Shown here piece by piece: positions 1,144-26,406 of a DNA stretch of 36,460 bases (positions are counted from its first letter, which is position 1; every line of letters begins with the position of its first letter). The stretch is from a virus. A program made the position numbers and the translations under genes. Where the stretch lies: positions 1 through 36,460 of IMG/VR virus record IMGVR_UViG_3300047560_000914; one strand, 5' to 3'. Below the pieces are notes generated by a model that did no database searches, was not told the DNA's origin, and worked only from the letters and a program-made list of their open reading frames with translations.

Positions 1144-1914
1144 ATGAATACTAAACTCAAAGAGCTGTACTCAGCAATCAATCATCAAATACACGGTTTC
1201 TACGCATGTGCTGTGTTATCAGTTTATGCGCTAGGATGGATTGCGTACAATTATAACAATCCGTTGCTACTATTCCTGCTGTTTTTAGCAGTAGAAATTG
1301 CAGGCATACACATTAGTATTTTTGTACACAGAGCATGGACCCACAAAGCGTGGAAACCAACTCGTATATTAAATTTGTATGGATTGTTTATGTACACAAT
1401 CTTCTTTGTTGCTTCTTCGTTATGCTTTGCAGCAATTCACCGAAAGCATCATAGATATGCTGATACTCCACAAGATCCACACAGCCCTTACTTTATGAGC
1501 TTTTACCAAGTTGTTATTAAACCGATGTACAAATTAGATTTAAGTTACATCCCGGACTTGTTAAAAGACAAGGACCAACTATTTTTCCACAAGTACTATT
1601 GGCAAGTTAACATCTTAGTATGGACTATACTATGTTTGTTAGGACCAAGCTACGTTGCTTTTTGGTTTGCGTTTTTAGGTGCAGTAAACTTTAAGTTAAG
1701 ACTTATTAATTACACTGCACACCAGCACCCATCAAAGAAAGGTGCATCAAATAGTCTACCATGGGCTTTCTTTTTCTTAGAAGGCGAAGCATGGCATGCT
1801 AATCATCACGAGTCTCCTAGTAGCTGGAACTTTAGTCGAGCATGGTGGCAATTTGACCCCGGTGCTTGGACTATCAAGTTACTTGTTGCGCTAAGACTAG
1901 GCAAACTTAAATAG
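1144..1914 (+). CDS. Fatty-acid desaturase (acyl-CoA delta-9 type)
   Basis: A 256-aa membrane di-iron desaturase. The three histidine boxes are visible in order: HRAWTH (62-67), HRKHH (99-103) and HANHH (218-222). Hydrophobic stretches at about 20-60, 77-98 and 155-180 fit the usual four transmembrane helices. The family inserts a cis double bond into acyl chains at the membrane using O2 and an electron donor. No donor gene is seen nearby, so it would borrow host ferredoxin or cytochrome. It is shorter than many bacterial homologues (about 300 aa) but all ligand boxes are intact. It is one of only three plus-strand genes and sits between two minus-strand tRNA arrays, as expected for a mobile auxiliary metabolic gene. 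Lipid desaturases are known from cyanophages. Its exact regiospecificity cannot be told from sequence. Confidence 0.92.
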   Translation: MNTKLKELYSAINHQIHGFYACAVLSVYALGWIAYNYNNPLLLFLLFLAVEIAGIHISIFVHRAWTHKAWKPTRILNLYGLFMYTIFFVASSLCFAAIHRKHHRYADTPQDPHSPYFMSFYQVVIKPMYKLDLSYIPDLLKDKDQLFFHKYYWQVNILVWTILCLLGPSYVAFWFAFLGAVNFKLRLINYTAHQHPSKKGASNSLPWAFFFLEGEAWHANHHESPSSWNFSRAWWQFDPGAWTIKLLVALRLGKLK

Positions 1915-3354: not shown

Positions 3355-4515
3355 TTAGATGCCCAAATCATACATTTTACTTGTCATTGCTTTGAACCCA
3401 CTAGCTATGTTACTTGGATCTCTTTTCCAAGCATCTGGCCAGCTGCGCCACATTTCTTCTAAACCAACTCTCCACGAATACTTTGCAGGATCATCATCGG
3501 GTAACTTGAAGAACCATTCATCACGCGGTGTAAAAAATACACTGGGCGCTTTTACTTGGAACGGCGCACGTACCCACCATGGGTAAATCAATTCGTGTAC
3601 TTTAGACATAGTTAGCTGTCTTGTCAAGCCCCCATTTTCAAATTTTACTAAACCATGCGGTTCACCAGTTGCATCAGGGTGCCCGGCATGTAGTGTTTTA
3701 ATGAAATTTTTAATAATGTGCCCTTGTTTGATAGCAATCAACGGCGCATCCGGACTCCAGTAAAACAACTCATCAAACTCCCAGGGCCTGTTTTCCATTT
3801 GTTGATAAGGGCTGTGAGCCGTGTCAACAAAGTCAACAAAGTAAAAATAGTAATGGTCTTTAACTTGATGCATCCTAGGTTTGTCAATGCCCTGAATAAA
3901 CCCAACTTTCTTCCCAGTATCAAACATGTTAGTCCACTCTGGTACCGTAAGTTTAATGTCGTTCTTAGATGCATTGTTCGGGTTCATGTACCCATTCATG
4001 CGGTACCCCCAATTGAACTTTGTGTCTTCCTTGCTAAAGTAATCCATTACTAGCTTACTAACATCGATTACACGGTGCTTTAGGTTTGGGTTCTTCTCGC
4101 GGGCTTTTTCGATCAGCGGCATAGCAACGTGGAAGATTTCCCCGTTCATAAAACTTGTGCGATCCTTGGTTGCTTCGTAGTTTACATAGCTAACTACTTC
4201 ATCTAAATGTATGTCGTTTTCTATAAAACTATGAAAAATGTTTAAACTGTCTGCGCCACCGCTGAGCCAAAGTACCAGGTAATCGTATTTCTCACGTAAC
4301 TGTTGCGCCCTGCGTTTGTATAGTTCGGTAATGCTTTCTTGTGGTTCAGTTTTCCAATCAAGCGCACTATATGCATCTTCGTTAAAATTCCAACGAAGTG
4401 GCAAGCCTGTACGTTGATGCTCGTAAATTGTTTCTAGCTTGCTATAAGATCTAAAGTTACCGCATTGATAAAAACCAAACTGATCCTGCCTACTAGATAG
4501 AATTAAAGATTCCAT
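3355..4515 (-). CDS. PP-loop ATPase-like protein, paralogue C
   Basis: 386 aa. The N-terminal half carries a PP-loop pyrophosphatase motif, SGGADS at 85-90, after a beta strand (YLVLWL), as in asparagine synthetase, QueC and other N-type ATP pyrophosphatases that adenylate a substrate. Other blocks shared with the two upstream paralogues are WNFN (42-45), LDWKTEP (52-58), the ELYKRRAQQLREKYD helix, GIDKPR, ELFYWSPD and the C-terminal YDLG. There is no glutaminase domain, so it is not a complete asparagine synthetase. The ATG overlaps the previous stop as TAATG, with AGGA upstream, implying translational coupling. It is last of three tandem copies. The substrate is unknown. Confidence 0.8.
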   Translation of the reverse strand: MESLILSSRQDQFGFYQCGNFRSYSKLETIYEHQRTGLPLRWNFNEDAYSALDWKTEPQESITELYKRRAQQLREKYDYLVLWLSGGADSLNIFHSFIENDIHLDEVVSYVNYEATKDRTSFMNGEIFHVAMPLIEKAREKNPNLKHRVIDVSKLVMDYFSKEDTKFNWGYRMNGYMNPNNASKNDIKLTVPEWTNMFDTGKKVGFIQGIDKPRMHQVKDHYYFYFVDFVDTAHSPYQQMENRPWEFDELFYWSPDAPLIAIKQGHIIKNFIKTLHAGHPDATGEPHGLVKFENGGLTRQLTMSKVHELIYPWWVRAPFQVKAPSVFFTPRDEWFFKLPDDDPAKYSWRVGLEEMWRSWPDAWKRDPSNIASGFKAMTSKMYDLGI

Positions 4516-5663
4516 TATGTTCCTAAATCGTAAATCTTGCTGCTCATTGGTACTAGCCCTTTACTAATATCTTTAGGGTCTTTCTTCCATGAGTCTGGCC
4601 ACTGGCTCCACAAATAATCCAATCCTGTGCGCCATGCGTAACGGGCAGCATCGTTTTCGGGTAATTTGAAAAACCATTCATCACGCTGTGTAAAGATTAA
4701 ACTTGGTGCTTTAGCTTGGTATGGCACAGGGTACCAACCCGGGTAAATCAAACGATGCATAGTGTCAAGTGGAACACCGTACTTTTGATTGTTAATAGTT
4801 ACTTGTACTGTGCTAGCTTTTGCATCAGTCCATAAGTCACTGGCATTTGCCAATTTAATATACTTCTTTAAGACGTGTGATTGTTTAATTGCAATCTTAG
4901 GACTATCAGGACTCCAGTAAAACAATTCATCAAAGTCCCAAGGACGGTTAAGCATCTGTGCTTGTGCTGATACTGCTTGGTCTACCATGTCAACAAATGA
5001 AAAGTAGTAGTGATCCTTAACTTGGTGGATGCGTGGCTTATCAATACCCTGTATAAAGACAACTTTCTTACCAGCGTCAATCATATCACGCCAATGTTTT
5101 TGAGTTAGCTTAATGTTAATTTTGGATGAGTTGTTAGGGTTTAAGTAACCATTCATATGGTACACCCAATCAAACTTACTTTCGCGTTGCGAATAGTTGT
5201 CCATAATTAAAGAGGACAAATCTAGTAATGTGTGCTTTAGCCAGGGCTGCTTTAGTTTAGCTTGCTCAATCTTAGGGATCGATACATTGTAGATCTCCCC
5301 ATTCAAAAAATTAAACTTATCCCCTGTTGCTTCATAATTAACCATGCCCACACACTCATCAATGCGTATGTCATTATTAATAAAACTGTTTAGCACATTA
5401 CTAGAGTCGGCGCCGCCGCTAAACCAAAGCACAACGTAATCATACTTGTCTCGTATTTGCTGTGCTCGTATACGGTAGAGCTCCTCCAGTGTTTCTGTGG
5501 GCTCTACTTTCCAGTCGTAGCTAGAAAAGACTGGCTCATTAAAATTCCATTTAACTCTACCGCCAGTTTTGTTTGCGTTAAGTGCTTCTAACTTGCTGTA
5601 GTACTTACAGTCATTGACTTCGTAGAAGCCAAATTGGTCCATGTTAAAATTTAAAATGTTCAT
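4515..5663 (-). CDS. PP-loop ATPase-like protein, paralogue B
   Basis: 382 aa, clearly the closest relative of the next gene downstream: both share the FSGGADS/LSGGADS loop (82-87 here), VNYEAT, GYxNPNN, GIDKPRxHQVKDHYYF, the RPWxFDELFYWSPD block and the DEWFFKLP block. The first ATG overlaps the end of the upstream paralogue by about 20 bases; an alternative ATG at 5642 (residue 8, MDQFGF) would give no overlap. Known PP-loop enzymes activate a carboxylate or carbonyl with ATP for amidation, thiolation or ring closure; which one applies here cannot be told. Confidence 0.8.
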   Translation of the reverse strand: MNILNFNMDQFGFYEVNDCKYYSKLEALNANKTGGRVKWNFNEPVFSSYDWKVEPTETLEELYRIRAQQIRDKYDYVVLWFSGGADSSNVLNSFINNDIRIDECVGMVNYEATGDKFNFLNGEIYNVSIPKIEQAKLKQPWLKHTLLDLSSLIMDNYSQRESKFDWVYHMNGYLNPNNSSKINIKLTQKHWRDMIDAGKKVVFIQGIDKPRIHQVKDHYYFSFVDMVDQAVSAQAQMLNRPWDFDELFYWSPDSPKIAIKQSHVLKKYIKLANASDLWTDAKASTVQVTINNQKYGVPLDTMHRLIYPGWYPVPYQAKAPSLIFTQRDEWFFKLPENDAARYAWRTGLDYLWSQWPDSWKKDPKDISKGLVPMSSKIYDLGT

Positions 5664-6828
5664 TGATACCAGTACTTATATATTCTGCTGGACCAAGATC
5701 ATAAAAGGGGCTCAAGAATCCAACAAACCCAACAGGTCTGCCTAGCTCAGTGTTGAAGTATTTGAGGTCAATGTTTTTAACTAGGTAAGCTAGACCAGCT
5801 TCCCACCGTCTGTACGCATCTGTGTCTTTAAAGTTAGTGTAGAACCAAAAGTCCATCTCGTTATAGAAACTGTTAGATGGTTTAGATGTTTGGAACGTTG
5901 CAGGATTGTAGTCCGGATAGATTAAAGGCTTTACGACTTGTTCATATGTTGTTCGTTGGGCAACACTATAATTAGGCCATCGTACAAGAAATTGCAGGAA
6001 CTGATTTTGCGGAAGACTAAACCAACTCTTGATGGTATGCGCTTGAGCGAGTACAAGTTCAGGTAAGTCGGGTGTCCAGTAAAAGTACTCGTTTGTGATG
6101 TTAGTGTATTCGTACACAACAGAATTAGAATGATTTGCTTGCAAATCCATAAAGTATGCATACCAGCGCCCGTCCTTAATACACATCTTAGGCTTGTCTA
6201 CTCCGTACAATACGCAAATACTTTTGCCGGTATCTGCATCCCTGCGATGGTCAATTAAACTAATATTGTCATGCTTAAACGCATGTCCAGGCTGAAAGTA
6301 GTCTTTTGTTTTTAATACCCACGACTCATCTGCTTCGCCCTTTAACATATCCTCACTATAGTCATGTATCGTAACTTTGGTCTTAGGATAGTTAGTAGAG
6401 ATCCATTGTAGCAATGGCTTGGCCGCAAACTCCCATTCGCTTAGTGTGTTCTCACATTTAGTATTAAACGGATCGTTGCTTACATTCTTCTCGCCTGTTT
6501 TGGGATAACGAAACACAACTTCATCTAAGTGGATGCCGTTGTGCAAGAAACTATAAATTGCAGTAGTACTGTCTCCCCCACCGCTAGCTTCTACACGAAT
6601 CCAATCATACTTGTCGCGCAGTTGTTGCGCTCTCATACGATACAGTTCTTTTAAAGGAATGTTAGGTGGCGTTGCCCAATCTAACTTAGCGTACACATCT
6701 CGATTAAAGTTCCACTCGGGAAAGATACCTGTGCGGGTAGCTTCTATTAAGGCTTCCACTTTGCCATAACAGACTTTGTCACCTAGTTTGTAGTATCCTA
6801 ACTTAGGATTGTTATCGAGTTTATACAT
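5644..6828 (-). CDS. PP-loop ATPase-like protein, paralogue A (divergent)
   Basis: 394 aa, first and most divergent of the three. It keeps the PP-loop as SGGGDS (82-87), the WNFN and LDWATPP blocks, ELYRMRAQQLRDKYD, GVDKPK, EYFYWTPDLPE, PLIYPDY and the terminal YDLG. Where the other two have VNYEAT it has an unrelated stretch, and the DEWFF block reads DFWFY. These differences suggest a distinct substrate or a heteromeric partner role. The ATG follows tRNA-Arg by only 8 bases and has no clear Shine-Dalgarno site, so the gene is probably co-transcribed with the tRNA. Confidence 0.78.
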   Translation of the reverse strand: MYKLDNNPKLGYYKLGDKVCYGKVEALIEATRTGIFPEWNFNRDVYAKLDWATPPNIPLKELYRMRAQQLRDKYDWIRVEASGGGDSTTAIYSFLHNGIHLDEVVFRYPKTGEKNVSNDPFNTKCENTLSEWEFAAKPLLQWISTNYPKTKVTIHDYSEDMLKGEADESWVLKTKDYFQPGHAFKHDNISLIDHRRDADTGKSICVLYGVDKPKMCIKDGRWYAYFMDLQANHSNSVVYEYTNITNEYFYWTPDLPELVLAQAHTIKSWFSLPQNQFLQFLVRWPNYSVAQRTTYEQVVKPLIYPDYNPATFQTSKPSNSFYNEMDFWFYTNFKDTDAYRRWEAGLAYLVKNIDLKYFNTELGRPVGFVGFLSPFYDLGPAEYISTGINEHFKF

Positions 6829-6914: not shown

Positions 6915-7289
6915 TTATCTAACCGCTTTTGCTCTAGCAACTAGCACATCTTCAATGTTACCCTTAATAATAACATTGGTGTACGAATCTGTCAAGCCAC
7001 TAGCGTGATCCGTTACCCTATTGTCAGGTTCGTGATACGTTCTAATACGTTCAGTGCCTGCTTGGTTACGATCTTTGTCTTTGTGAAAGTGTGCAACTAC
7101 ACGGTTACGGCAAACATTATACGCCGCAGCTTTGTTATCTTCGCGGCTACGACTGTTTGTTCCGTTGGCTTGTATTCCAGTGGGTTCGTGAATACAGCGG
7201 CAACAATTTTGATGCTTGTTGCGATGCTGTCCTCCCTTACCTGTACCGGAGAACCATTCAAAACGGAATTGATCTTCTGTGAGTTTCAT
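6915..7289 (-). CDS. Stand-alone class I release-factor (GGQ) domain protein
   Basis: About 124 aa consisting of the catalytic domain of bacterial RF1/RF2. The motif GTGKGGQHRNKHQN contains the universal GGQ (19-21) that triggers peptidyl-tRNA hydrolysis, and the end carries RIRTYHEPDNRVTDHASGLT, matching the RTYxxPxxRVTDHRxxxT signature of RF1/RF2. The stop-codon recognition domain is missing, as in the rescue factors ArfB and PrfH, but there is no clearly basic ArfB-type tail. Starts at 7307 (ATG) and 7313 (TTG) are also possible; none has a strong Shine-Dalgarno site. It sits between two tRNA genes, fitting a role in translation such as ribosome rescue or release during infection; this role is inferred. 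Confidence 0.82.
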   Translation of the reverse strand: MKLTEDQFRFEWFSGTGKGGQHRNKHQNCCRCIHEPTGIQANGTNSRSREDNKAAAYNVCRNRVVAHFHKDKDRNQAGTERIRTYHEPDNRVTDHASGLTDSYTNVIIKGNIEDVLVARAKAVR

Positions 7290-7322
7290 AACTGTATTTT
7301 GGTGCATTACCAAGATGCTTTG

Positions 7323-8059: not shown

Positions 8060-8818
8060 TCAAGTTGGTTTGCGCTCTATGTCACTTTCGTCACATGCGC
8101 TACCATACTGTATTTCCACAATACGACATGGCGTATTATACGGATTATGCAGTCTATGCCAAGCCATAGTTGGTATATGTGTGTTGTTGTGTTCGCTTAA
8201 CTCTATATTGGGCAGCATAAATCCATTTTCTAATTGCTGCTCTACAATACATTGCCCTTCGCTAACGTGCCAGTACTCAGCACGAAATTGATGGCGTTGC
8301 ATACTTAAACTTTTCCCTGGGTTAATTGTTAGTTCTTTAACTTTGGTGCCTGGCACATCATGTAGGACTCGATAGTAACCCCATGGGCGCTCGGTCTTGG
8401 GCGCTTTCCACTCTTGTAGAATCCAGCTGCTACTGTTGGCTTTGTCTTCTCCACCAACACCAAACACAAACTCTACTCCTGTTACTGACATTTCGGGAAT
8501 ATTGTCTTGTGTGCGATCTCCGCCATTTGCAAAGATGATTACATCGTTAGGATATTGTGCTTTAAGATCTTCTAGCAACTTAATGGCACTACCGTCACTG
8601 TCGTTCCAGTAGGTGGTTTGATCAACATACTTGATCTTGCTTACAACAGCATAGCGTTCGTTCCATGGCATAAATGCTGCACCCTTTTTGCGTTCAAGCC
8701 AGGCATCACTGTTTAGGCCAACGATTAGGATATCACCAAGTTGCTTTGCTGCTTTAAGGTAGGCGATGTGCCCACTGTGGATAGGATCAAACCCACCGGT
8801 TGCGATTACAATTTTCAT
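8060..8818 (-). CDS. Nucleotidyltransferase-cupin fusion (RfaE/TagD-like + mannose-6-P isomerase-like)
   Basis: About 252 aa. Residues 1-125 form a cytidylyltransferase fold with the signature GGFDPIHSGH (8-17) and, near the end of the domain, the SSS(W) element, as in HldE/RfaE, TagD and GlyCT. From about 138 a cupin follows with the ManC/PMI type II pattern: ERPWGYY, KVKELTINPGKSLSMQRHQF with the metal-binding His, then IP...HRLHNP and IEIQYG-like VEIQYG. The two activities suggest making or activating a sugar-phosphate nucleotide. The ATG at 8818 overlaps the upstream stop as ATGA; an upstream in-frame start at 8851 is less likely. It follows a methyltransferase gene, fitting surface sugar modification of host or virion, which is inferred. 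Confidence 0.82.
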   Translation of the reverse strand: MKIVIATGGFDPIHSGHIAYLKAAKQLGDILIVGLNSDAWLERKKGAAFMPWNERYAVVSKIKYVDQTTYWNDSDGSAIKLLEDLKAQYPNDVIIFANGGDRTQDNIPEMSVTGVEFVFGVGGEDKANSSSWILQEWKAPKTERPWGYYRVLHDVPGTKVKELTINPGKSLSMQRHQFRAEYWHVSEGQCIVEQQLENGFMLPNIELSEHNNTHIPTMAWHRLHNPYNTPCRIVEIQYGSACDESDIERKPT

Positions 8819-9564
8819 GTCTTTGCTTGATAGAAGTCTTTGTCTAACCAAGAGTAAACAATATCTTCTTGGCGAATGTGTCCGTGTTTGTTTAAACTCG
8901 ATACTGTGCTGTCGTTTAATAAACCCATGTCAGCTAAATCGTGCAAACTAGTTTTAGTCGGGTCCATGGGCTCTGCACTCTTGTATACTGCTAAGTTAAT
9001 CCAGTTACTTTGAATGTTTTTGTAAAAGTACGCATCACGGCAATCAAACCCATTCACGGCCAGCATGTAAATTAAACTTGGGATTGTAAAGTTGAAGTAA
9101 CTATAATCATGAACTTTAAATTGTAACTTGTTATACACGTAATTAATATTCTGCGGTAAACTCATTACTAACATACCGTCCATGTTCATTTGACTATTCC
9201 ACTGTGCTAGCGTCTGGATTGGACTAATAGAATACTGAAACGAATCATGGCTCCAAATCAAATCAGCACGTTCGGGGATTTCCATACTATGGAAGTCTCG
9301 CTCAAGCCAGCGAATGTTTGGGATCAATTTAACATCGGGTTCAACCTTAGATAGGTCACGATCAATTGCATACACACGATAGTTACGTTGTTCCGGTGGG
9401 TCATCACGTGTTTCTAATGTTGCCCACCATTGTGCATCTAGACCGGCGCCACACCCAACATCGTAAATTACAGTTAAACTATCAAGGAAACTATCATAGC
9501 CATACAACAAGTTTAGTATCTCTAAACTATGCTCATGACTATAATAAGGATTACTAAAGCTCAT
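8815..9564 (-). CDS. Class I SAM-dependent methyltransferase
   Basis: 249 aa. SAM-binding motif I is clear: VIYDVGCGAGLDAQWWA at about 32-48, followed by YAIDRD (motif II acidic residue) and RADLIWSHDSFQYS (motif IV). The C-terminal half may give substrate specificity. It is coupled by ATGA overlaps both to the UvsY-like gene upstream and to the nucleotidyltransferase-cupin gene downstream. The substrate is not evident; a sugar or small molecule is likelier than DNA because no DNA target-recognition or NPPY motif is seen. Confidence 0.82.
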   Translation of the reverse strand: MSFSNPYYSHEHSLEILNLLYGYDSFLDSLTVIYDVGCGAGLDAQWWATLETRDDPPEQRNYRVYAIDRDLSKVEPDVKLIPNIRWLERDFHSMEIPERADLIWSHDSFQYSISPIQTLAQWNSQMNMDGMLVMSLPQNINYVYNKLQFKVHDYSYFNFTIPSLIYMLAVNGFDCRDAYFYKNIQSNWINLAVYKSAEPMDPTKTSLHDLADMGLLNDSTVSSLNKHGHIRQEDIVYSWLDKDFYQAKT

Positions 9565-10246: not shown

Positions 10247-10553
10247 TCTTACCTTCTTTCTTTGCCACTATTAAATCATCTGTACACCCTGTACAGTGTT
10301 GTTGATAGCATGTTGTTGGGTGTTGCAACAACTGCCACTTGCTATTTAGATTACCTAAGTAATCATTTAAGCATTGTCCGCTATACACTTCGTTATCAGT
10401 ATTGATGTACAATCTAGAGTACCCTGCCTCACAAGACCAACCGGTCCAATGATCTAGCCCTTGGTTGTGTAACCAATTGCCATCAATACGATAGTGCCTA
10501 GTGTTGTCTAGCACTACTTCGCAATTATAATACTCATGGGGTTGGAATTTCAA
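10236..10553 (-). CDS. SPASM-like C-terminal part of radical SAM protein, in +1 frame
   Basis: 105 codons opened by a TTG, rich in Cys (GWSCEAG, YSGQCLND, TTCYQQHCTGC), the pattern of the auxiliary iron-sulfur (SPASM/twitch) domain that normally follows a radical SAM barrel. The first plausible residues continue directly from the end of the upstream radical SAM ORF, which it overlaps by 20 bases in the +1 frame, and no Shine-Dalgarno site precedes the TTG. This is probably the tail of the upstream gene, separated by a frameshift (programmed, mutational or a sequencing error) rather than an independent gene. Confidence 0.6.
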   Translation of the reverse strand: MKFQPHEYYNCEVVLDNTRHYRIDGNWLHNQGLDHWTGWSCEAGYSRLYINTDNEVYSGQCLNDYLGNLNSKWQLLQHPTTCYQQHCTGCTDDLIVAKKEGKNER

Positions 10554-11166
10554 GATTTAGTTTACCTTTCATAATCGGAACTTCCCTAGTCTTATAACTG
10601 TATTCGATTTCGTTAACGTTATGACTTATGTTGTTCTGTTTAAGGATATCAACATACGCCGCGATGCGGTCTGTGTTCCAGAACTCATTCATTACGTTAA
10701 CATGTATAAATTTATCTTTCGCAATAGTCTCGCGTAATTTAATTACGGTATTGAAGAACTTCTTTTCGTCAATGTGCTCACTATGCGTACTAAACGAAAT
10801 GTTATCAACTACTTCAAACATTTTCAAATAATAGTTGTATGTAGCACTTCCGTTAGTGGTTAACAAAATTTGTTTAATCTTCGAGCTGTAATTCTCACGC
10901 AACCATTTAACAAACGGGTAGAACGCTTTATTGCCTGTTACTTCTCCGCCAGTAAAACTAATCTTATACTGTAAATTTCTACCCTTTGATTGCTCGTAAA
11001 TTGATAACCAGTTTGCTTTTAACTCATCGAGGGATTTGTGTTTACTTGTACTATCGTGCCACTGCGGGCCGCAGTACATACAATCGTAATTGCAACGGCG
11101 ACCTAATTCCCACGTAATCGAAAAAGTATTTTCAACCGGGAATATCTCTATTACTTTTGGATCCAT
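10534..11166 (-). CDS. Radical SAM protein, core domain (second of pair)
   Basis: 210 aa. The [4Fe-4S]-binding motif CNYDCMYC (25-32) is canonical CxxxCxxC, and the SAM-binding GGE motif FTGGEVTG is at 71-78. The protein stops after the partial TIM barrel, and its missing auxiliary cluster domain is encoded in the +1 frame immediately downstream. It overlaps the preceding radical SAM gene by 16 bases. The family generates a 5'-deoxyadenosyl radical; members with a SPASM domain often modify peptides. The substrate is unknown. Confidence 0.8.
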   Translation of the reverse strand: MDPKVIEIFPVENTFSITWELGRRCNYDCMYCGPQWHDSTSKHKSLDELKANWLSIYEQSKGRNLQYKISFTGGEVTGNKAFYPFVKWLRENYSSKIKQILLTTNGSATYNYYLKMFEVVDNISFSTHSEHIDEKKFFNTVIKLRETIAKDKFIHVNVMNEFWNTDRIAAYVDILKQNNISHNVNEIEYSYKTREVPIMKGKLNLEIPTP

Positions 11167-12299
11167 AGTTTAAACGATTCAGGGTAAATGTCTAACGACA
11201 AGTTGCGGCGCTTTGCAAATTCTAAAATAAATGATTTGCATTGTGCAATATGTTCTTCTGTGTGCGTTGCACTTACTGCTTGGTGTATTTTGTCAGTGTG
11301 ATATTTAAACGTTGTTTCTAGAATTTTGTCTCTGCTTGCAGGGTCTAATAGACTAGGCGCAAGATATAATGGATCAATTAATATGTTAAAGTAATCTTCC
11401 TCTGTACCGAACTCATCCTGAAACTCTTTAAATCCATGCACTGTTAAGTTGCATATTGTATTTGCAAATTTGTACTTTATACCGTACTTACGTATAGTGT
11501 CTAAATTAGTAAGAAGATTGCTATAACTGTTGCCATAACGGTTGAATTCGTACAATTCACCTGTGTTTTCTGCACTAATAACTAGTGTAGTTATGTCTGC
11601 TGGCAATTGTTGCACAATTCTATCAAACCGCTTTGGATTGACGCCTAAGCCTGTTGTAATTTCAATTCGTTCTGCTTCTGTTAAACGAACGATGTCTTCG
11701 AGACCGTTATACAGGAATGGTTCACCGCCCATAAACTTTAACACCTGCAACTTACGCAAGCTTGCGACTTCGTCCAGTATTAGTTTGTAGCGTGGGCTGT
11801 TTTTAATTGCAGCCTGACCTATTTTAATAATAGCGCGGTCATCGATTGTGATGTTAAACCTGTCGTCACCTGCATAGTCCGGTAGGTAAGTACCATTGTC
11901 CGAAATATCTCGAAGCCAAGCGGTGCTATAACGCTTAGTGCAGTACGAACAAGTCATATTGCAATCACTGCCTAATATAACTTCAACAACTTCAGGGGTG
12001 GATTCTAATTGTGTAAACTGCCGATCACTTGCAGCTTGGTGTATTGTTCTACGACTCGGGATACCTTTTGATTCAGGAATCCAACAACCTCGTGAGCAAC
12101 TAGAAACAGGCTTGTTGTCTAGCATATCCTGACGCTCTTGTAAGATTGTAGGATTGTTAAACAACTTGCCGTTGTTGGTTTTAAGCCAAGTAGTATCAAT
12201 TGGTTGTTGGTCTGCTTTACAGCAGGAAGCTAACAGCCGCCTTTCGGGATCAACTGTTAGCCACCACCACTTTTGACTACAATAAAAGTTATTCTGCAT
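11151..12299 (-). CDS. Radical SAM protein with N-terminal twitch-like Cys domain
   Basis: About 382 aa. An N-terminal Cys-rich region (FYCSQKWWWL, LLASCCKAD, SSCSRGCW) precedes the core motif CNMTCSYC (113-120) and GGEP (191-194), so the auxiliary-cluster-like part comes before the barrel, the reverse of the usual SPASM order. The ATG at 12299 overlaps the end of uvsX (GGATGCAGAATAA); an upstream start at 12323 would overlap more. It is translated in the recombination operon just after uvsX. Likely functions are peptide or protein side-chain modification or an unknown metabolite step; no substrate can be named. Confidence 0.8.
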   Translation of the reverse strand: MQNNFYCSQKWWWLTVDPERRLLASCCKADQQPIDTTWLKTNNGKLFNNPTILQERQDMLDNKPVSSCSRGCWIPESKGIPSRRTIHQAASDRQFTQLESTPEVVEVILGSDCNMTCSYCTKRYSTAWLRDISDNGTYLPDYAGDDRFNITIDDRAIIKIGQAAIKNSPRYKLILDEVASLRKLQVLKFMGGEPFLYNGLEDIVRLTEAERIEITTGLGVNPKRFDRIVQQLPADITTLVISAENTGELYEFNRYGNSYSNLLTNLDTIRKYGIKYKFANTICNLTVHGFKEFQDEFGTEEDYFNILIDPLYLAPSLLDPASRDKILETTFKYHTDKIHQAVSATHTEEHIAQCKSFILEFAKRRNLSLDIYPESFKLWIQK

Positions 12300-13368
12300 C
12301 CTCAACCACAGGGGCTTCTTCAAGCGAAGTGTTCTTGTCGAACTTGTGTGGATTAGCAGTAATGTCAGCCATAATTTTATCTAGACTACCGTCTTCGTTA
12401 CGTTCCCATGCTTTGCGGAATTGTTTAATAATTTCGCCGTCAGTTGTAACATACTTTAGACTGTTGCCTTCTTTAGTAAGTAGGCCTTTTGCTTCGCATA
12501 AATCAACCATGCCAGAGTATGGGTTCATACCTGTTTCGTATGGAATCTTAACTTGAACACTTTCAAAAGGTTTAGCATAACGTGTCTTCATGATCTTACA
12601 TGCTGCACGAATACCTTTAACTTCTGAAATCTTGTTACCGTCTTCGTCTTCCTTCAACTTCAACTTACGCATAGCCACAACAATAGAGCTAGCATAGATA
12701 AAGCCTTGACCACCGGAGATCTTGTCGTCAGGATCAAACATATCCTGCGATGCGTATGTATGGTTAGTTGCTACTAGTCCAATGTTTAAATCGCCAAACA
12801 TGTTCACACAGTTACGAACAAGTGCTGTTAGTGCTTTAGGCTTACGACCCAAGTCACCTTTAAGGTCACCTGCTTGGAATTGGTTAACGTCAGTTGGCGT
12901 TAACATCATACCCAGCGAGTCAAGCACAAACAATACCTTGGGACGTTGGTCTTCGGGCAGTGCTTTATATTCTTTAACAAAGTCATTAATTAACTTAGCA
13001 ACGTCATCAATCATTGCCACGTTAAGTTTAAGTAGTTTCTCTTCTGAGGTGTCAACCCCAAGTGCATGTAGCCATTGCTCGTCAAGAGCGTTTTCAGTAT
13101 CAACAAGAATAACGTAGATACCTTGTTCCTGTGCATTTTTAATAATGTTACCGGAACAAATATACGACTTACCTGCACCAGATTCTCCAGCAAAAACTGT
13201 AACCTTGCCCATTGGGATGCCCTTATTGAAATCACCCGAAATGAGGTAGTTAAGCGCAAAGTTGTTGGTGCTGATCCAAGTATCCGGATCACGAAAGCCG
13301 ATACTAAGACCTTCAATACTTTTTGTAATTGTTTTACGAAATTTACTTACGTCAAATGGTTTAGCCAT
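12289..13368 (-). CDS. uvsX: UvsX RecA-like recombinase
   Basis: 359 aa. Walker A GESGAGKS at 61-68 and Walker B VLFVLDS at 145-151 are in place, followed by the L2/ATPase region GLVATNHTYASQDMF. T4 UvsX is 391 aa. It catalyses homologous strand exchange for recombination-dependent replication and repair together with gp32 and UvsY. The start is preceded by AAGGAAA. It follows gp32 after a tetraloop hairpin and heads an operon with radical SAM genes and the UvsY-like gene. Confidence 0.95.
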   Translation of the reverse strand: MAKPFDVSKFRKTITKSIEGLSIGFRDPDTWISTNNFALNYLISGDFNKGIPMGKVTVFAGESGAGKSYICSGNIIKNAQEQGIYVILVDTENALDEQWLHALGVDTSEEKLLKLNVAMIDDVAKLINDFVKEYKALPEDQRPKVLFVLDSLGMMLTPTDVNQFQAGDLKGDLGRKPKALTALVRNCVNMFGDLNIGLVATNHTYASQDMFDPDDKISGGQGFIYASSIVVAMRKLKLKEDEDGNKISEVKGIRAACKIMKTRYAKPFESVQVKIPYETGMNPYSGMVDLCEAKGLLTKEGNSLKYVTTDGEIIKQFRKAWERNEDGSLDKIMADITANPHKFDKNTSLEEAPVVEDAE

Positions 13369-23427: not shown

Positions 23428-24369
23428 TTAAGCCTTTTGGATGCTTTCAACTAGTCCAGCTTGGAAGTAGTCAGCATACATGTCGTATACTTGACCAACA
23501 ACTTCTTGGAACTTAACTAGCTCTTTGTCGTCCATACGAACAACTTCAACACCTTGCGCTTCGCATTCAGCTAAAATGTTAGGAATGTCAGCAACGCTTG
23601 TTGTACGCTCAGTTAAGGCAGCTTCTGCGGCTGCTTGGCTGAATACGGCTTGATCGTGCATATCTAAACCAGCAAAGAAGTCTTTGTTAGTAATGATACT
23701 TGTTAAGAACAAGCTGTGAGCTGTGTCGTTAACTACATCAAAGCTCTTGTGTTGATCCAATGGGAAAACACGAACGTATGTAGATTCGCCAGCTTCAATG
23801 ATGCCTTGATCGGCTGCGGCATTCATTTCTTCTAGAGCAATACCGTCAAAAGGTTGTGCGCCTAGTAGTTTGAATGTGTCAACTGCAACTGGGCTACGGC
23901 TTGTACGAACCTTCTTGCCTTGCCATGCTTCGACTGTATCGGCACGGAAGTTAGCAGGAACAATACGGAAACCGCCTGAATATGTGTAGCTCATAGCGTG
24001 AATGTTGCTGTTGTTGCTTACTGTGTTTAGAAGACTACGACCAATGTCGCCATCTAGTACACGAGTTGCGTGATCGTGGTCCTTAAATAGGAACGGTAGA
24101 TCAAGAGCGTGTAGGTCCCTGTTGTAATCAGCCAACCATGTTGTATAGATGTGGCTCATTTCAATAGCACCAGAGTTAATTAGATCCATTAGATCATTCT
24201 TAGTAACACGGACACCATTGTTGTACTTGTTAGAATAGTCTGTTAGGCTTAGAACTTCGATGAAGTACTTGCCTTTAGCTTTAGCGTTAACTTTAGCTGC
24301 AAAGTCTTCAGCTACTTTCAAGAACAAACCGATAGGTTCGTGCGCGATTACCCACTTAATGTGTTTCAT
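23428..24369 (-). CDS. TRAP-type (DctP-like) solute-binding protein without signal peptide
   Basis: 313 aa. The middle carries the DctP-family hallmark GKKVRTSRSPVAVDTFKLLGAQPFDGI (Arg in RTSRSP binds the carboxylate ligand in this family), followed by NAAADQGIIEAGESTY. Known members are periplasmic receptors delivering C4-dicarboxylates, sialic acid or related acids to DctQM membrane proteins. This one begins MKHIKWVIAHEP with no hydrophobic leader, whereas the two neighbouring binding proteins have clear signal peptides. It therefore may be cytoplasmic and have been repurposed, or its true start was lost. No DctQ or DctM is in the window. AAGGAAA precedes the ATG. Confidence 0.85.
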   Translation of the reverse strand: MKHIKWVIAHEPIGLFLKVAEDFAAKVNAKAKGKYFIEVLSLTDYSNKYNNGVRVTKNDLMDLINSGAIEMSHIYTTWLADYNRDLHALDLPFLFKDHDHATRVLDGDIGRSLLNTVSNNSNIHAMSYTYSGGFRIVPANFRADTVEAWQGKKVRTSRSPVAVDTFKLLGAQPFDGIALEEMNAAADQGIIEAGESTYVRVFPLDQHKSFDVVNDTAHSLFLTSIITNKDFFAGLDMHDQAVFSQAAAEAALTERTTSVADIPNILAECEAQGVEVVRMDDKELVKFQEVVGQVYDMYADYFQAGLVESIQKA

Positions 24370-24527: not shown

Positions 24528-25460
24528 TTATTTAGTCCGAGCTTCGTCAATTTTGTCCTTATACTTGGTTGTCAAATAATGCATCTGACTAACTCGTTTG
24601 TTAAAGAACTCTTCTACTGACATCGGTGGGTTAAAGAATACTGGAGGGTTCATGTCAGAACTATCCAAAATCGCTTTCTCGCCAATTGACTCTTGTGCTG
24701 ACTCTAGGATCTTTGAAATTTCTTTTCGGCGTTGCTCGTTCATTGCTTTATTTGCAACTGTAGAAATAAAAACGCTAGGGACGTTAAACCCTTGCTCTGC
24801 TAAAGTTTTTACGTTTGGCATTGTACGATTTCGTTTAGAGCAATCAATTCCCAATACTTGTAATTTAGGATTTTTGTCTTTAAACATTTGGTAACTTGCT
24901 ACACGCTCAAGTACCATGTTAGGCCCGTTGTTGCCCACCATTGCTACTAACCCATCAAAGTTTGATTTGTAAACAACATACCTAAGTTTGAACTTGTATT
25001 TTTCACTTAGGGCAATTGCTACCATGTGCGCCACGTTGCCAAATCCTGTTCCGCCAACAACCAGCTCATCAATCCCACGCAGGCTATCTGTACCTAGTTT
25101 AGTGTCACCAACGTTAGTGATAACTGCCCAGCAAGCATCCCCTTGGGTTGACACCGGTATGTAATCCGCTTCGTTAATGTAGCCTTGTTTGGCATTTTCA
25201 ACAAATGCTGCTGCAACAGTGGATAAGCGATTTGATGGGCTAGCATCCATTGCTTTAAGTGCAAGTACGCCATTGGCACCTGGCTTAAACTCAGGCACAA
25301 ACTCGTACTTAGTTTGCATTTTATTAGCATTTTCTAGAGTACGCAAATACACTGAGGTGTTAGACTGTGTTGGCGACGAGCCAATCTGAACAGTAATAAG
25401 CTCTTTGGCGCTAACCAAAGAGCTCACTAATACTAACATTGTTGCTAGTATATGTTTCAT
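24528..25460 (-). CDS. TctC/Bug-family solute-binding protein
   Basis: 310 aa. A Sec signal peptide (MKHILATMLVLVSSLVSA, cleavage after residue 18) directs it to the periplasm. The family signatures are KPGANGVLALKAM and GGTGFGNVAHMVAIAL, and the C terminus ends with the usual helix. TctC/Bug proteins bind carboxylates such as citrate, tricarballylate or amino acids for tripartite tricarboxylate transporters. No TctA/B gene is present here, so it would supply a host transporter or scavenge solutes. Translation is coupled to the upstream paralogue (1 base between stop and ATG). Confidence 0.88.
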   Translation of the reverse strand: MKHILATMLVLVSSLVSAKELITVQIGSSPTQSNTSVYLRTLENANKMQTKYEFVPEFKPGANGVLALKAMDASPSNRLSTVAAAFVENAKQGYINEADYIPVSTQGDACWAVITNVGDTKLGTDSLRGIDELVVGGTGFGNVAHMVAIALSEKYKFKLRYVVYKSNFDGLVAMVGNNGPNMVLERVASYQMFKDKNPKLQVLGIDCSKRNRTMPNVKTLAEQGFNVPSVFISTVANKAMNEQRRKEISKILESAQESIGEKAILDSSDMNPPVFFNPPMSVEEFFNKRVSQMHYLTTKYKDKIDEARTK

Positions 25461-25461
25461 G

Positions 25462-26367
25462 TTAGTTTACCTTAACTTGGCTTGCAAGCTTTTTCCAGTA
25501 GTTAGTATGGAACTCAAAGAACTTGTCTAGCCCAGTAACTGGAACCGACTGTGGCTCACAGTAATCAACTGCGTATGCTGCACGTACTGATTCAGTCTTT
25601 GCTGCTTTAGCTAAGATTGCATGAATTTCTTTACGCTGGTCTTCGCTTACTGTTGTTGGGAGTAACATATGGTGGCCAACATTCATGTCAGCAAAGCTCT
25701 TGTCAAATCCTTGTTTAACTAGTGGCGTGTAACCGTTAATAACTTTAGTACCAGTAATACCAAGAACTGTTACTTTACGGTCACTGTTAGCATTTTCCTT
25801 GCTCCATTGTTCTGCTTCAGAGATAAAGCCAATGTGCAAGTCTGTTTGACCCGATACCATGCTTAACATAGAATCGTTTGTAGACTTAAACGGAACAATG
25901 TTTAACTGTGGATATTTCTTTTGCAATTCAATTGCAGCCAAGTGAGTAGTAACACCCAAACCACTAATACCAACGCTTGCATTTGCAGGAACGTCTTTAA
26001 CTGACTTGTACTTGGTACTTGTTACAGCCATTGGTGCCATACAGTGAACATACTGTTCTTTGAATTTGCTTAGATCATAGCTTTCATTTGGGTACACAAC
26101 CGGACGAACAAAGAACGCTGTACTGTGTGCTAAAATGCTGTTTGGGGTAGCAAGTACGTGATTGGATGCAATAGCACCACCTGCGCCTGGCTTTGTGTCA
26201 AATACAAAATTGTACTTGTCTTGAATCTTGTTTGCTTCGTTTGCAATAGTACGATGATAATTAGCTACCGAGTCGCCCGGTCCCCAAGCATAAAAGATTG
26301 TAATATTTTCTTTGGCTGTTGCAGCCAAAGCGAATGTAGCCATAAGAATGGCAATAAGTTTCTTCAT
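25462..26367 (-). CDS. TctC/Bug-family solute-binding protein
   Basis: About 301 aa. Signal peptide MKKLIAILMATFALAATA then KENITI. Bug signatures include DTKPGAGGAIASNHVL near 57-73 and VGISGLGVTTHLAAIEL in the ligand loop. It is only distantly similar to the next gene, so they are not a recent duplication. Start chosen at 26367, which has GGAGATTCTC upstream; the TTG at 26379 lies inside that Shine-Dalgarno region. First gene of the binding-protein cassette, following the gp4 terminator. Confidence 0.88.
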   Translation of the reverse strand: MKKLIAILMATFALAATAKENITIFYAWGPGDSVANYHRTIANEANKIQDKYNFVFDTKPGAGGAIASNHVLATPNSILAHSTAFFVRPVVYPNESYDLSKFKEQYVHCMAPMAVTSTKYKSVKDVPANASVGISGLGVTTHLAAIELQKKYPQLNIVPFKSTNDSMLSMVSGQTDLHIGFISEAEQWSKENANSDRKVTVLGITGTKVINGYTPLVKQGFDKSFADMNVGHHMLLPTTVSEDQRKEIHAILAKAAKTESVRAAYAVDYCEPQSVPVTGLDKFFEFHTNYWKKLASQVKVN

Positions 26368-26406
26368 GAGAATCTCCAAAAATAGTATTTTATACTTTTA
26401 GAAAAC

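What the first reader, a model, noticed from the sequence alone, without database searches (positions are those of the whole stretch)
3355..6828. Three tandem PP-loop ATPase paralogues of unknown function
Three coupled genes of 382-394 aa share SGGADS/SGGGDS PP-loops and about ten further conserved blocks ending in YDLG, but carry no glutaminase or other known partner domain. Two copies are close, the first is divergent, suggesting duplication followed by specialisation or a heteromeric enzyme. PP-loop enzymes adenylate substrates (asparagine synthetase, QueC, lasso cyclases). A phage spending 3.5 kb on three of them implies a dedicated modification pathway not explained by T4 biology.
Basis: partly seen in the sequence, partly recalled or inferred. 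Interest (0 to 1): 0.78.

Follow-up and report, generated by a model that had tools for sequence, protein, structure and literature searches.

The report
Phage asparagine-synthetase-like enzymes beside acid-binding proteins
Three neighbouring genes of an uncultivated T4-like phage encode active-looking relatives of asparagine synthetase from an abundant family unseen in cultured phages, and in related phages these genes usually sit beside genes for exported proteins that bind organic acids, hinting at a phage module that captures an acid and turns it into an amide.

Summary
Window 3355-6828 (minus strand) carries three overlapping genes of 394, 382 and 386 aa with SGGxDS PP-loops and no glutaminase domain. 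PP2/PP1 are 56% identical; PP3 is about 31% identical to both. No Pfam, PHROG, NCBIfam or PADLOC model claims them, and none of 50,697 deposited phage records has a relative, but at least 541 IMG/VR stretches do. Confident AlphaFold models of PP3 and PP2 both match asparagine synthetase B and beta-lactam synthetase best (Z 9.3-11.8 over 248-292 residues, against 7-9 over 150-190 for most other PP-loop enzymes). Purifying selection is strong, and PP-loop, Lys212, Lys316, Glu131 and Asp228 are (nearly) invariant in 61 diverse members.

New clue: in related phages the commonest neighbour is a TctC/'Bug' carboxylate-binding protein with a signal peptide (41 of 92 non-redundant genes). By an independent Pfam model, 17 of 31 TctC genes lie within 500 bp of a PP gene (about 1 expected). 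Best reading: AMP-forming carboxylate-amine ligases in a carboxylate capture-and-amidation module. The fold is well supported, the substrate inferred. The main rival is nucleobase hypermodification, since FolE-QueD-QueE often co-occurs; the DNA-glycinylation pathway (CmoAXY) was tested and not found.

The parts
5644..6828 (-). PP3: 394 aa asparagine-synthetase-like PP-loop enzyme, SGGGDS; dominant subfamily of the family
   Evidence: AF2 pLDDT 87.6, pTM 0.89; AsnB Z 11.1 over 286 residues; orthologues mostly at 62% identity or more in IMG/VR
4515..5663 (-). PP2: 382 aa paralogue, SGGADS; overlaps PP3 by 20 nt
   Evidence: AF2 pLDDT 89.3, pTM 0.90; AsnB Z 11.8 over 281 residues
3355..4515 (-). 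PP1: 386 aa paralogue, SGGADS; of the PP2 type, overlaps PP2 by 1 nt
   Evidence: same clade as PP2 in the tree
25462..26379 (-). TctC/'Bug'-type periplasmic carboxylate-binding protein with signal peptide; the family is usually next to PP genes in related phages but about 18 kb away here
   Evidence: Pfam TctC E 3e-4, below cut-off; N-terminal hydrophobic stretch
24528..25460 (-). second TctC/'Bug'-type binding protein with signal peptide
   Evidence: Pfam TctC E 1.9e-7, above cut-off; hydrophobic N-terminus
23428..24369 (-). DctP (TRAP-type) dicarboxylate-binding homologue without a signal peptide
   Evidence: Pfam DctP E 2.3e-39; no hydrophobic N-terminus

Best explanation
The three genes encode paralogous ATP-pyrophosphatases of the asparagine synthetase / beta-lactam synthetase fold that have no glutaminase domain. 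By analogy each adenylates a carboxylate with ATP (releasing PPi) and passes the acyl group to ammonia or an amine, forming an amide. The family works mainly as a module with phage-encoded solute-binding proteins: an exported TctC/Bug-type carboxylate-binding protein would load a carboxylate onto the host's tripartite tricarboxylate permease, and the cytosolic PP enzyme(s) would use it. Copies have diverged, each probably for its own acid. Shown: gene structure, purifying selection, fold (predicted), conserved catalytic-type residues, physical linkage to TctC genes. Inferred: ligase chemistry, the carboxylate substrate, use of host permeases.
For: Fold: two separately predicted models rank AsnB, human ASNS and beta-lactam synthetase first, Z 9.3-11.8 with 248-292 aligned residues spanning residues 1-372. 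Active site: S82, G83, G84, D86, D102, G209, K212 invariant and S87, E103, E131, D156, D228, E247, Q262, H264, K316 at 92-98% in 61 members. Selection. Linkage: 41 of 92 non-redundant PP genes have a TctC gene next to them, the commonest neighbour, mostly same strand with overlaps or short gaps. 20 of 34 Bug genes within 1.5 kb of a PP gene versus 1.2 expected, and 12 of 21 DctP genes within 3 kb versus 1.3. With the independent Pfam TctC model, 17 of 31 within 500 bp versus 1.0. Linkage occurs in several genomic contexts and with deep PP paralogues; Mantel r 0.57, p 2e-4. Close relatives of this phage (terminase 84-86%) have PP3-PP2-TctC in a row: L074, L076, L085. TctC and DctP families are assigned tri- and dicarboxylates (PMC9602780), and AsnB-fold enzymes activate carboxylates (established knowledge).
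Against: No sequence-level relation to AsnB beyond the PP-loop (hhalign 13-25 columns, probability 7-9%), and Pfam Asn_synthase is not among the hits. In this window the TctC/DctP genes are about 18 kb from the PP genes. Many PP genes lack a direct TctC neighbour (51 of 92). Four Bacteriovoracaceae homologues have no obvious SBP beside them. DctP genes closest to the window's copy rarely have PP nearby (7 of 80). The DctP homologues lack a signal peptide, which does not fit a simple uptake role. Adjacency could partly reflect a shared auxiliary-gene hot spot; the null model places genes at random, and the phages are related to one another.
Confidence: 0.4

Rival explanations
1. Nucleobase hypermodification: the PP enzymes adenylate a carboxylate on a modified base, for example 7-carboxy-7-deazaguanine made by phage FolE-QueD-QueE (replacing QueC), and convert it to an amide or conjugate that ends up in DNA or tRNA.
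For: QueD and QueE occur in 17 of 20 records with the family and 2 of 11 without (Fisher p 5e-4). FolE and a phosphoribosyltransferase sit in the same clusters. True QueC is largely absent. Ten of 61 members hit Pfam QueC weakly, best E 0.02. A phage AsnB-like ligase, CmoY, modifies DNA (PMC12783734).
Against: G003, G011 and G028 have the family without QueD/QueE; G015 and G016 have QueD/QueE without it. The records are related, so the p value is inflated. QueE lies several kb from PP genes, not adjacent. No conserved Cys, so no QueC-type zinc site. Another 287-299 aa PP-loop protein sits next to QueD. No TGT match. CmoX absent from 20 records.
Confidence: 0.22
2. Sugar amidation: the enzymes amidate uronic-acid sugars or other glycan building blocks for surface or DNA glycosylation, like AsnB-type sugar amidotransferases of O-antigen clusters.
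For: The phages carry epimerase-, DegT-aminotransferase- and glycosyltransferase-like genes elsewhere in the same genomes (read by eye); the window has a fused nucleotidyltransferase/mannose-isomerase-type protein.
Against: Sugar genes are not the direct neighbours of PP genes; TctC, PP itself and DctP are. Known sugar amidotransferases of this type keep the glutaminase (own knowledge).
Confidence: 0.1
3. Peptide or protein modification (lasso-cyclase-like isopeptide formation, or amide ligation on a small phage or host protein), with SBPs nearby by coincidence.
For: The beta-lactam synthetase fold relatives include lasso cyclases (established knowledge), and two radical SAM genes lie upstream in the window.
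Against: Direct neighbours are SBPs; a conserved short precursor ORF was not looked for systematically.
Confidence: 0.06
4. Defence or counter-defence enzymes, with a PP-loop nucleotide-consuming or -restoring role (DndC-like or NAD-synthetase-like).
For: NAD synthetases are among the top Foldseek matches of PP2.
Against: No PADLOC hit; a NadE-type enzyme is a separate gene in one such phage; AsnB-type structures match over more residues.
Confidence: 0.05

Closest known systems
Asparagine synthetase B (E. coli, PDB 1ct9) / beta-lactam synthetase (1jgt, 1mbz) / carbapenam synthetase (1q15)
   Same: Predicted fold: PP-loop domain plus helical C-terminal region, Z 9.3-11.8 for AsnB, ASNS and beta-lactam synthetase and 8.6-8.9 for carbapenam synthetase; SGGxDS motif.
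   Different: No N-terminal glutaminase; no detectable sequence relation beyond the PP-loop; 382-394 aa against about 500.
CmoY, ATP-dependent amide ligase of Synechococcus phage S-B43 (PMC12783734)
   Same: Phage-encoded AsnB-like ligase without glutaminase in a T4-like phage.
   Different: No similarity beyond the PP-loop; 271 aa; acts with CmoA/CmoX, which are not beside PP genes, and CmoX is absent from 20 records, nearly all PP-positive.
QueC, 7-cyano-7-deazaguanine synthase
   Same: PP-loop enzyme that adenylates a carboxylate; weak Pfam hits in 10 of 61 members; the phages often carry QueD/QueE.
   Different: Hits below cut-off; no conserved cysteines.
Uncharacterised proteins of 'uncultured Caudovirales phage' (UniProt A0A6J5TD96, A0A6J5LU00, A0A6J7WGK7)
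   Same: Same fold and probably same family: TM-score up to 0.89, 28-32% identity.
   Different: Only database entries, no function assigned.

Membership tests
PP-loop ATP-pyrophosphatase superfamily | SGGxDS PP-loop motif | tested here: met
   S82, G83, G84, D86 in 61/61, S87 in 98%
PP-loop ATP-pyrophosphatase superfamily | PP-loop Rossmann-type fold | tested here: met
   Two confident models; the listed PDB matches are almost all PP-loop enzymes
Asparagine synthetase B / beta-lactam synthetase group | Synthetase-domain fold extending beyond the PP-loop core | tested here: met
   Predicted models only: Z 9.3-11.8, 248-292 residues aligned
Asparagine synthetase B / beta-lactam synthetase group | Sequence-profile membership (Pfam Asn_synthase PF00733) | tested here: not met
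   Not among Pfam hits of 61 members up to E 0.5; hhalign aligns only the PP-loop
Glutamine-dependent asparagine synthetase | N-terminal Cys glutaminase domain | tested here: not met
   Only about 80 residues precede the PP-loop; no conserved Cys; no Pfam domain
QueC | Pfam QueC above cut-off | tested here: not met
   10 of 61 members at best E 0.02
QueC | C-terminal zinc-binding cysteines | tested here: not met
   No Cys column above 69%
CmoY-type phage DNA amide ligase | Sequence homology to SpCmoY | tested here: not met
   hmmsearch --max score 0.1 bits; no tblastn hit in loci held
CmoY-type phage DNA amide ligase | CmoX carboxymethyltransferase in the same genome | tested here: not met
   0 of 20 IMG/VR records; control S-B43 positive
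DndC or other known defence PP-loop protein | Match to PADLOC models | tested here: not met
   No hit up to E 1
AMP-forming carboxylate-amine ligase | ATP-PPi exchange and amide formation | not testable with these tools
   Needs an enzyme assay
Lasso peptide cyclase (McjC) | Precursor peptide and McjB-type protease beside it | not tested
   -

The most novel reading that the evidence does not exclude
A new family of phage amide ligases that has diversified together with phage-encoded carboxylate-binding proteins into matched import-and-amidate cassettes, giving these T4-like phages a private metabolic route in which acids captured outside the cell are converted to amides needed for infection.
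Probability: 0.25. Interest if true: 0.85.

Novelty: new variant of a known kind. Interest (0 to 1): 0.6.

Why it matters
The family is common in uncultivated phages (at least 541 IMG/VR stretches in one capped scan), absent from 50,697 deposited phage records as far as the four members searched show, and unnamed in Pfam, PHROGs and NCBIfam. The fold plus the TctC linkage gives a concrete, assayable prediction (which carboxylate, which amine) and would link phage transport genes to a phage biosynthetic enzyme. If the rival is right, it would be another route to hypermodified phage nucleobases.

Tried and rejected
T4-known functions: no convincing PHROG or Pfam match and no tblastn match in deposited phages. 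CmoY/CmoX DNA glycinylation: tested and absent. TGT/DpdA by Pfam TGT: none in 31 records, though a divergent phage DpdA could be missed. Sequence-level AsnB relation by profile-profile comparison, with 30 and 61 sequences: only the PP-loop aligns. The idea that the N-terminal hairpin and helix (GYYxVGDxxFYSKxEAL) is a remnant of the AsnB glutaminase domain: suggestive by eye and by the aligned range, but not supported by hhalign, so not claimed. PDB sequence search: only chance hits. A general DctP-PP association: strong when anchored on PP genes, but only 7 of 80 when anchored on DctP genes like the window's, so the firm link is TctC-PP. Cellular origin: only 4 of 291 sampled genomes from the phylum of the Bacteriovoracaceae hits match, and these are the same four MAGs; one Methylococcaceae MAG fragment groups with phage copies. 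Literature searches found no paper on phage TctC/PP cassettes in the held library.
Full report
OBSERVATION. The three ORFs are real and exactly where described. In transcription order they are PP3 (5644-6828, 394 aa), PP2 (4515-5663, 382 aa) and PP1 (3355-4515, 386 aa), all on the minus strand, overlapping by 20 nt and 1 nt. Pairwise identities are 56% (PP1/PP2) and 31% (either with PP3). Synonymous sites are near saturation while pN is 0.08-0.11 against the two closest PP3 orthologues and 0.23-0.30 for PP2/PP1-type comparisons, so the genes are under purifying selection. The window is part of a T4-like phage: UvsY, a gp32-like protein and the large terminase are recognised, a UvsX/RecA-like ORF and tail genes were read from the sequence, and there are 14 tRNAs.

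A FAMILY KNOWN ONLY FROM UNCULTIVATED VIRUSES. No PHROG, Pfam, NCBIfam or PADLOC model claims the proteins. tblastn with four different members finds nothing in 50,697 deposited phage records. In bacterial genomes only five loci appear: four Bacteriovoracaceae/Bacteriovoracales MAGs, and a Methylococcaceae MAG fragment whose copy groups with phage copies. Among 291 sampled genomes of the same phylum as those MAGs, only the same four match. BFVD holds six structural relatives, all 'uncharacterized' proteins of uncultured Caudovirales phages. Among 31 large records, 20 carry clear members, 1-5 matched places each; one further record has only a marginal match.

STRUCTURE. AlphaFold2 models of PP3 (pLDDT 87.6, pTM 0.89) and PP2 (89.3, 0.90) were made from alignments of 30 and 34 members. 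For both, asparagine synthetase B, human ASNS and beta-lactam synthetase rank first after structural re-alignment (Z 9.3-11.8, rmsd about 5-7.6 A, 248-292 residues over model residues 1-372); most other PP-loop enzymes (NAD synthetase, GMP synthetase, LarE, TilS/MesJ) reach Z 7-9 over 150-190 residues. Foldseek alone gives carbapenam synthetase for PP3 and NAD synthetases for PP2 at the top, with modest E-values. Profile-profile comparison with true AsnB sequences aligns only the PP-loop. So the fold is AsnB-like, but membership of the AsnB sequence family is not shown. Sixty-one diverse members share an invariant or near-invariant set (PP-loop, D102, E103, E131, D156, G209, K212, D228, E247, Q262, H264, K316; a Lys at position 261 in 90%, though not in PP3 itself), consistent with active enzymes sharing one chemistry. 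There is no conserved cysteine.

EVOLUTION. The tree puts PP3 in a large clade of 36 (support 100/99) and PP1/PP2 in another with single copies from related phages; the order of PP1 and PP2 within it is unresolved. A PP3-type gene followed by a PP2-type gene recurs in relatives (L003, L004, L036, L074, L076, L077, L085), and L056 has the two types adjacent in the opposite order. Joint function of the two types is therefore plausible, but a heteromer was not tested.

NEIGHBOURHOOD. The commonest direct neighbour of PP genes is a TctC/Bug-type solute-binding protein: 41 of 92 non-redundant PP genes, against 28 for another PP gene and 16 for DctP. Most are on the same strand with overlaps or short gaps. 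In 20 large PP-positive records, after dropping two near-duplicates, 20 of 34 Bug genes lie within 1.5 kb of a PP gene (1.2 expected by random placement) and 12 of 21 DctP genes within 3 kb (1.3 expected). Those profiles were partly built from PP-neighbouring genes, so the test was repeated with Pfam's own TctC model: 17 of 31 genes within 500 bp, 1.0 expected. The linkage appears in at least three different gene contexts and for deep paralogues such as L019:13008, L066:12263, L078:3057, L082:13537 and L088:12223. PP and Bug distances correlate (Mantel r 0.57, p 2e-4; not corrected for phage phylogeny). Phages with a terminase 84-86% identical to the window's (L074, L076, L085) have PP3-PP2-Bug in a row. 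In the window itself two Bug genes and a DctP gene are roughly 17-20 kb away. Bug proteins have signal peptides and DctP homologues do not. TctC and DctP families are assigned tri- and dicarboxylates (PMC9602780).

MECHANISM. Best reading: cytosolic AMP-forming carboxylate-amine ligases (ATP + acid + amine -> amide + AMP + PPi) working with an exported carboxylate-binding protein. Step confidences: PP-loop fold about 0.97; AsnB-type synthetase fold about 0.8; ligase chemistry about 0.65; partnership with the TctC protein on a shared small acid about 0.4. The random-placement null ignores gene clustering, so an auxiliary-gene hot spot could explain part of the linkage.

MAIN RIVAL. FolE, QueD and QueE form clusters in these phages. 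QueD and QueE are present in 17 of 20 records with the family and 2 of 11 without, and canonical QueC is largely missing. 7-carboxy-7-deazaguanine is a carboxylate that a PP-loop enzyme normally activates, so a base-modification role is possible. Against it: exceptions in both directions, shared ancestry of the records, no direct adjacency, and a separate 287-299 aa PP-loop protein next to QueD. The recently described phage ligase CmoY (PMC12783734) shows that AsnB-like phage ligases can act on DNA, but CmoY is not a relative beyond the PP-loop, and its partner CmoX is absent from all 20 records tested while the control genome was positive.

VERDICT. This is a real, abundant, uncharacterised phage family with an AsnB-like fold and an unexpected genomic partnership; the reaction is inferred, not shown.

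Noticed in passing
window 23428-24369; L012, L031, L034, L048, L055, L059, L060, L064, L065, L067, L090: Phage DctP-type binding-protein homologues start at the mature N-terminus with no signal peptide, and in the listed loci the gene is split into two adjacent ORFs (about 157 + 162 aa).
   Followed up: partly
L288-L293 (regions of G020, G018, G030, G031, G002, G022): Phage clusters with GTP cyclohydrolase I, QueD, QueE and often a phosphoribosyltransferase but no clear QueC or TGT: a possible deazaguanine nucleotide pathway.
   Followed up: partly
L288:2732-3595: A second, shorter (287-299 aa) PP-loop family in the same phages, sometimes next to QueD; only a weak PP-loop Pfam match.
   Followed up: partly
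window 6915-7313: Small RF-1-domain protein with a GGQ motif (release-factor or ribosome-rescue-like) between tRNA-Arg and tRNA-Met genes, just upstream of PP3.
   Followed up: no
window 8060-8851: Fused nucleotidyltransferase (RfaE-like) and mannose-6-phosphate-isomerase-type cupin.
   Followed up: no
window 1144-1914: 256 aa plus-strand ORF with histidine boxes (HRAWTHK, HRKHHRYADTPQDPH, HANHH) typical of fatty-acid desaturases, lying among tRNA genes; no Pfam hit at E 0.01.
   Followed up: no
window 10534-12323: Two adjacent radical SAM proteins, the larger with extra N-terminal cysteines, next to UvsY; the larger type recurs upstream of PP genes in related phages.
   Followed up: partly
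L098-L101: Four Bacteriovoracaceae/Bacteriovoracales MAGs carry the only clearly cellular homologues; several have spermidine-synthase-like membrane proteins or small methyltransferase-like genes nearby (read by eye).
   Followed up: partly
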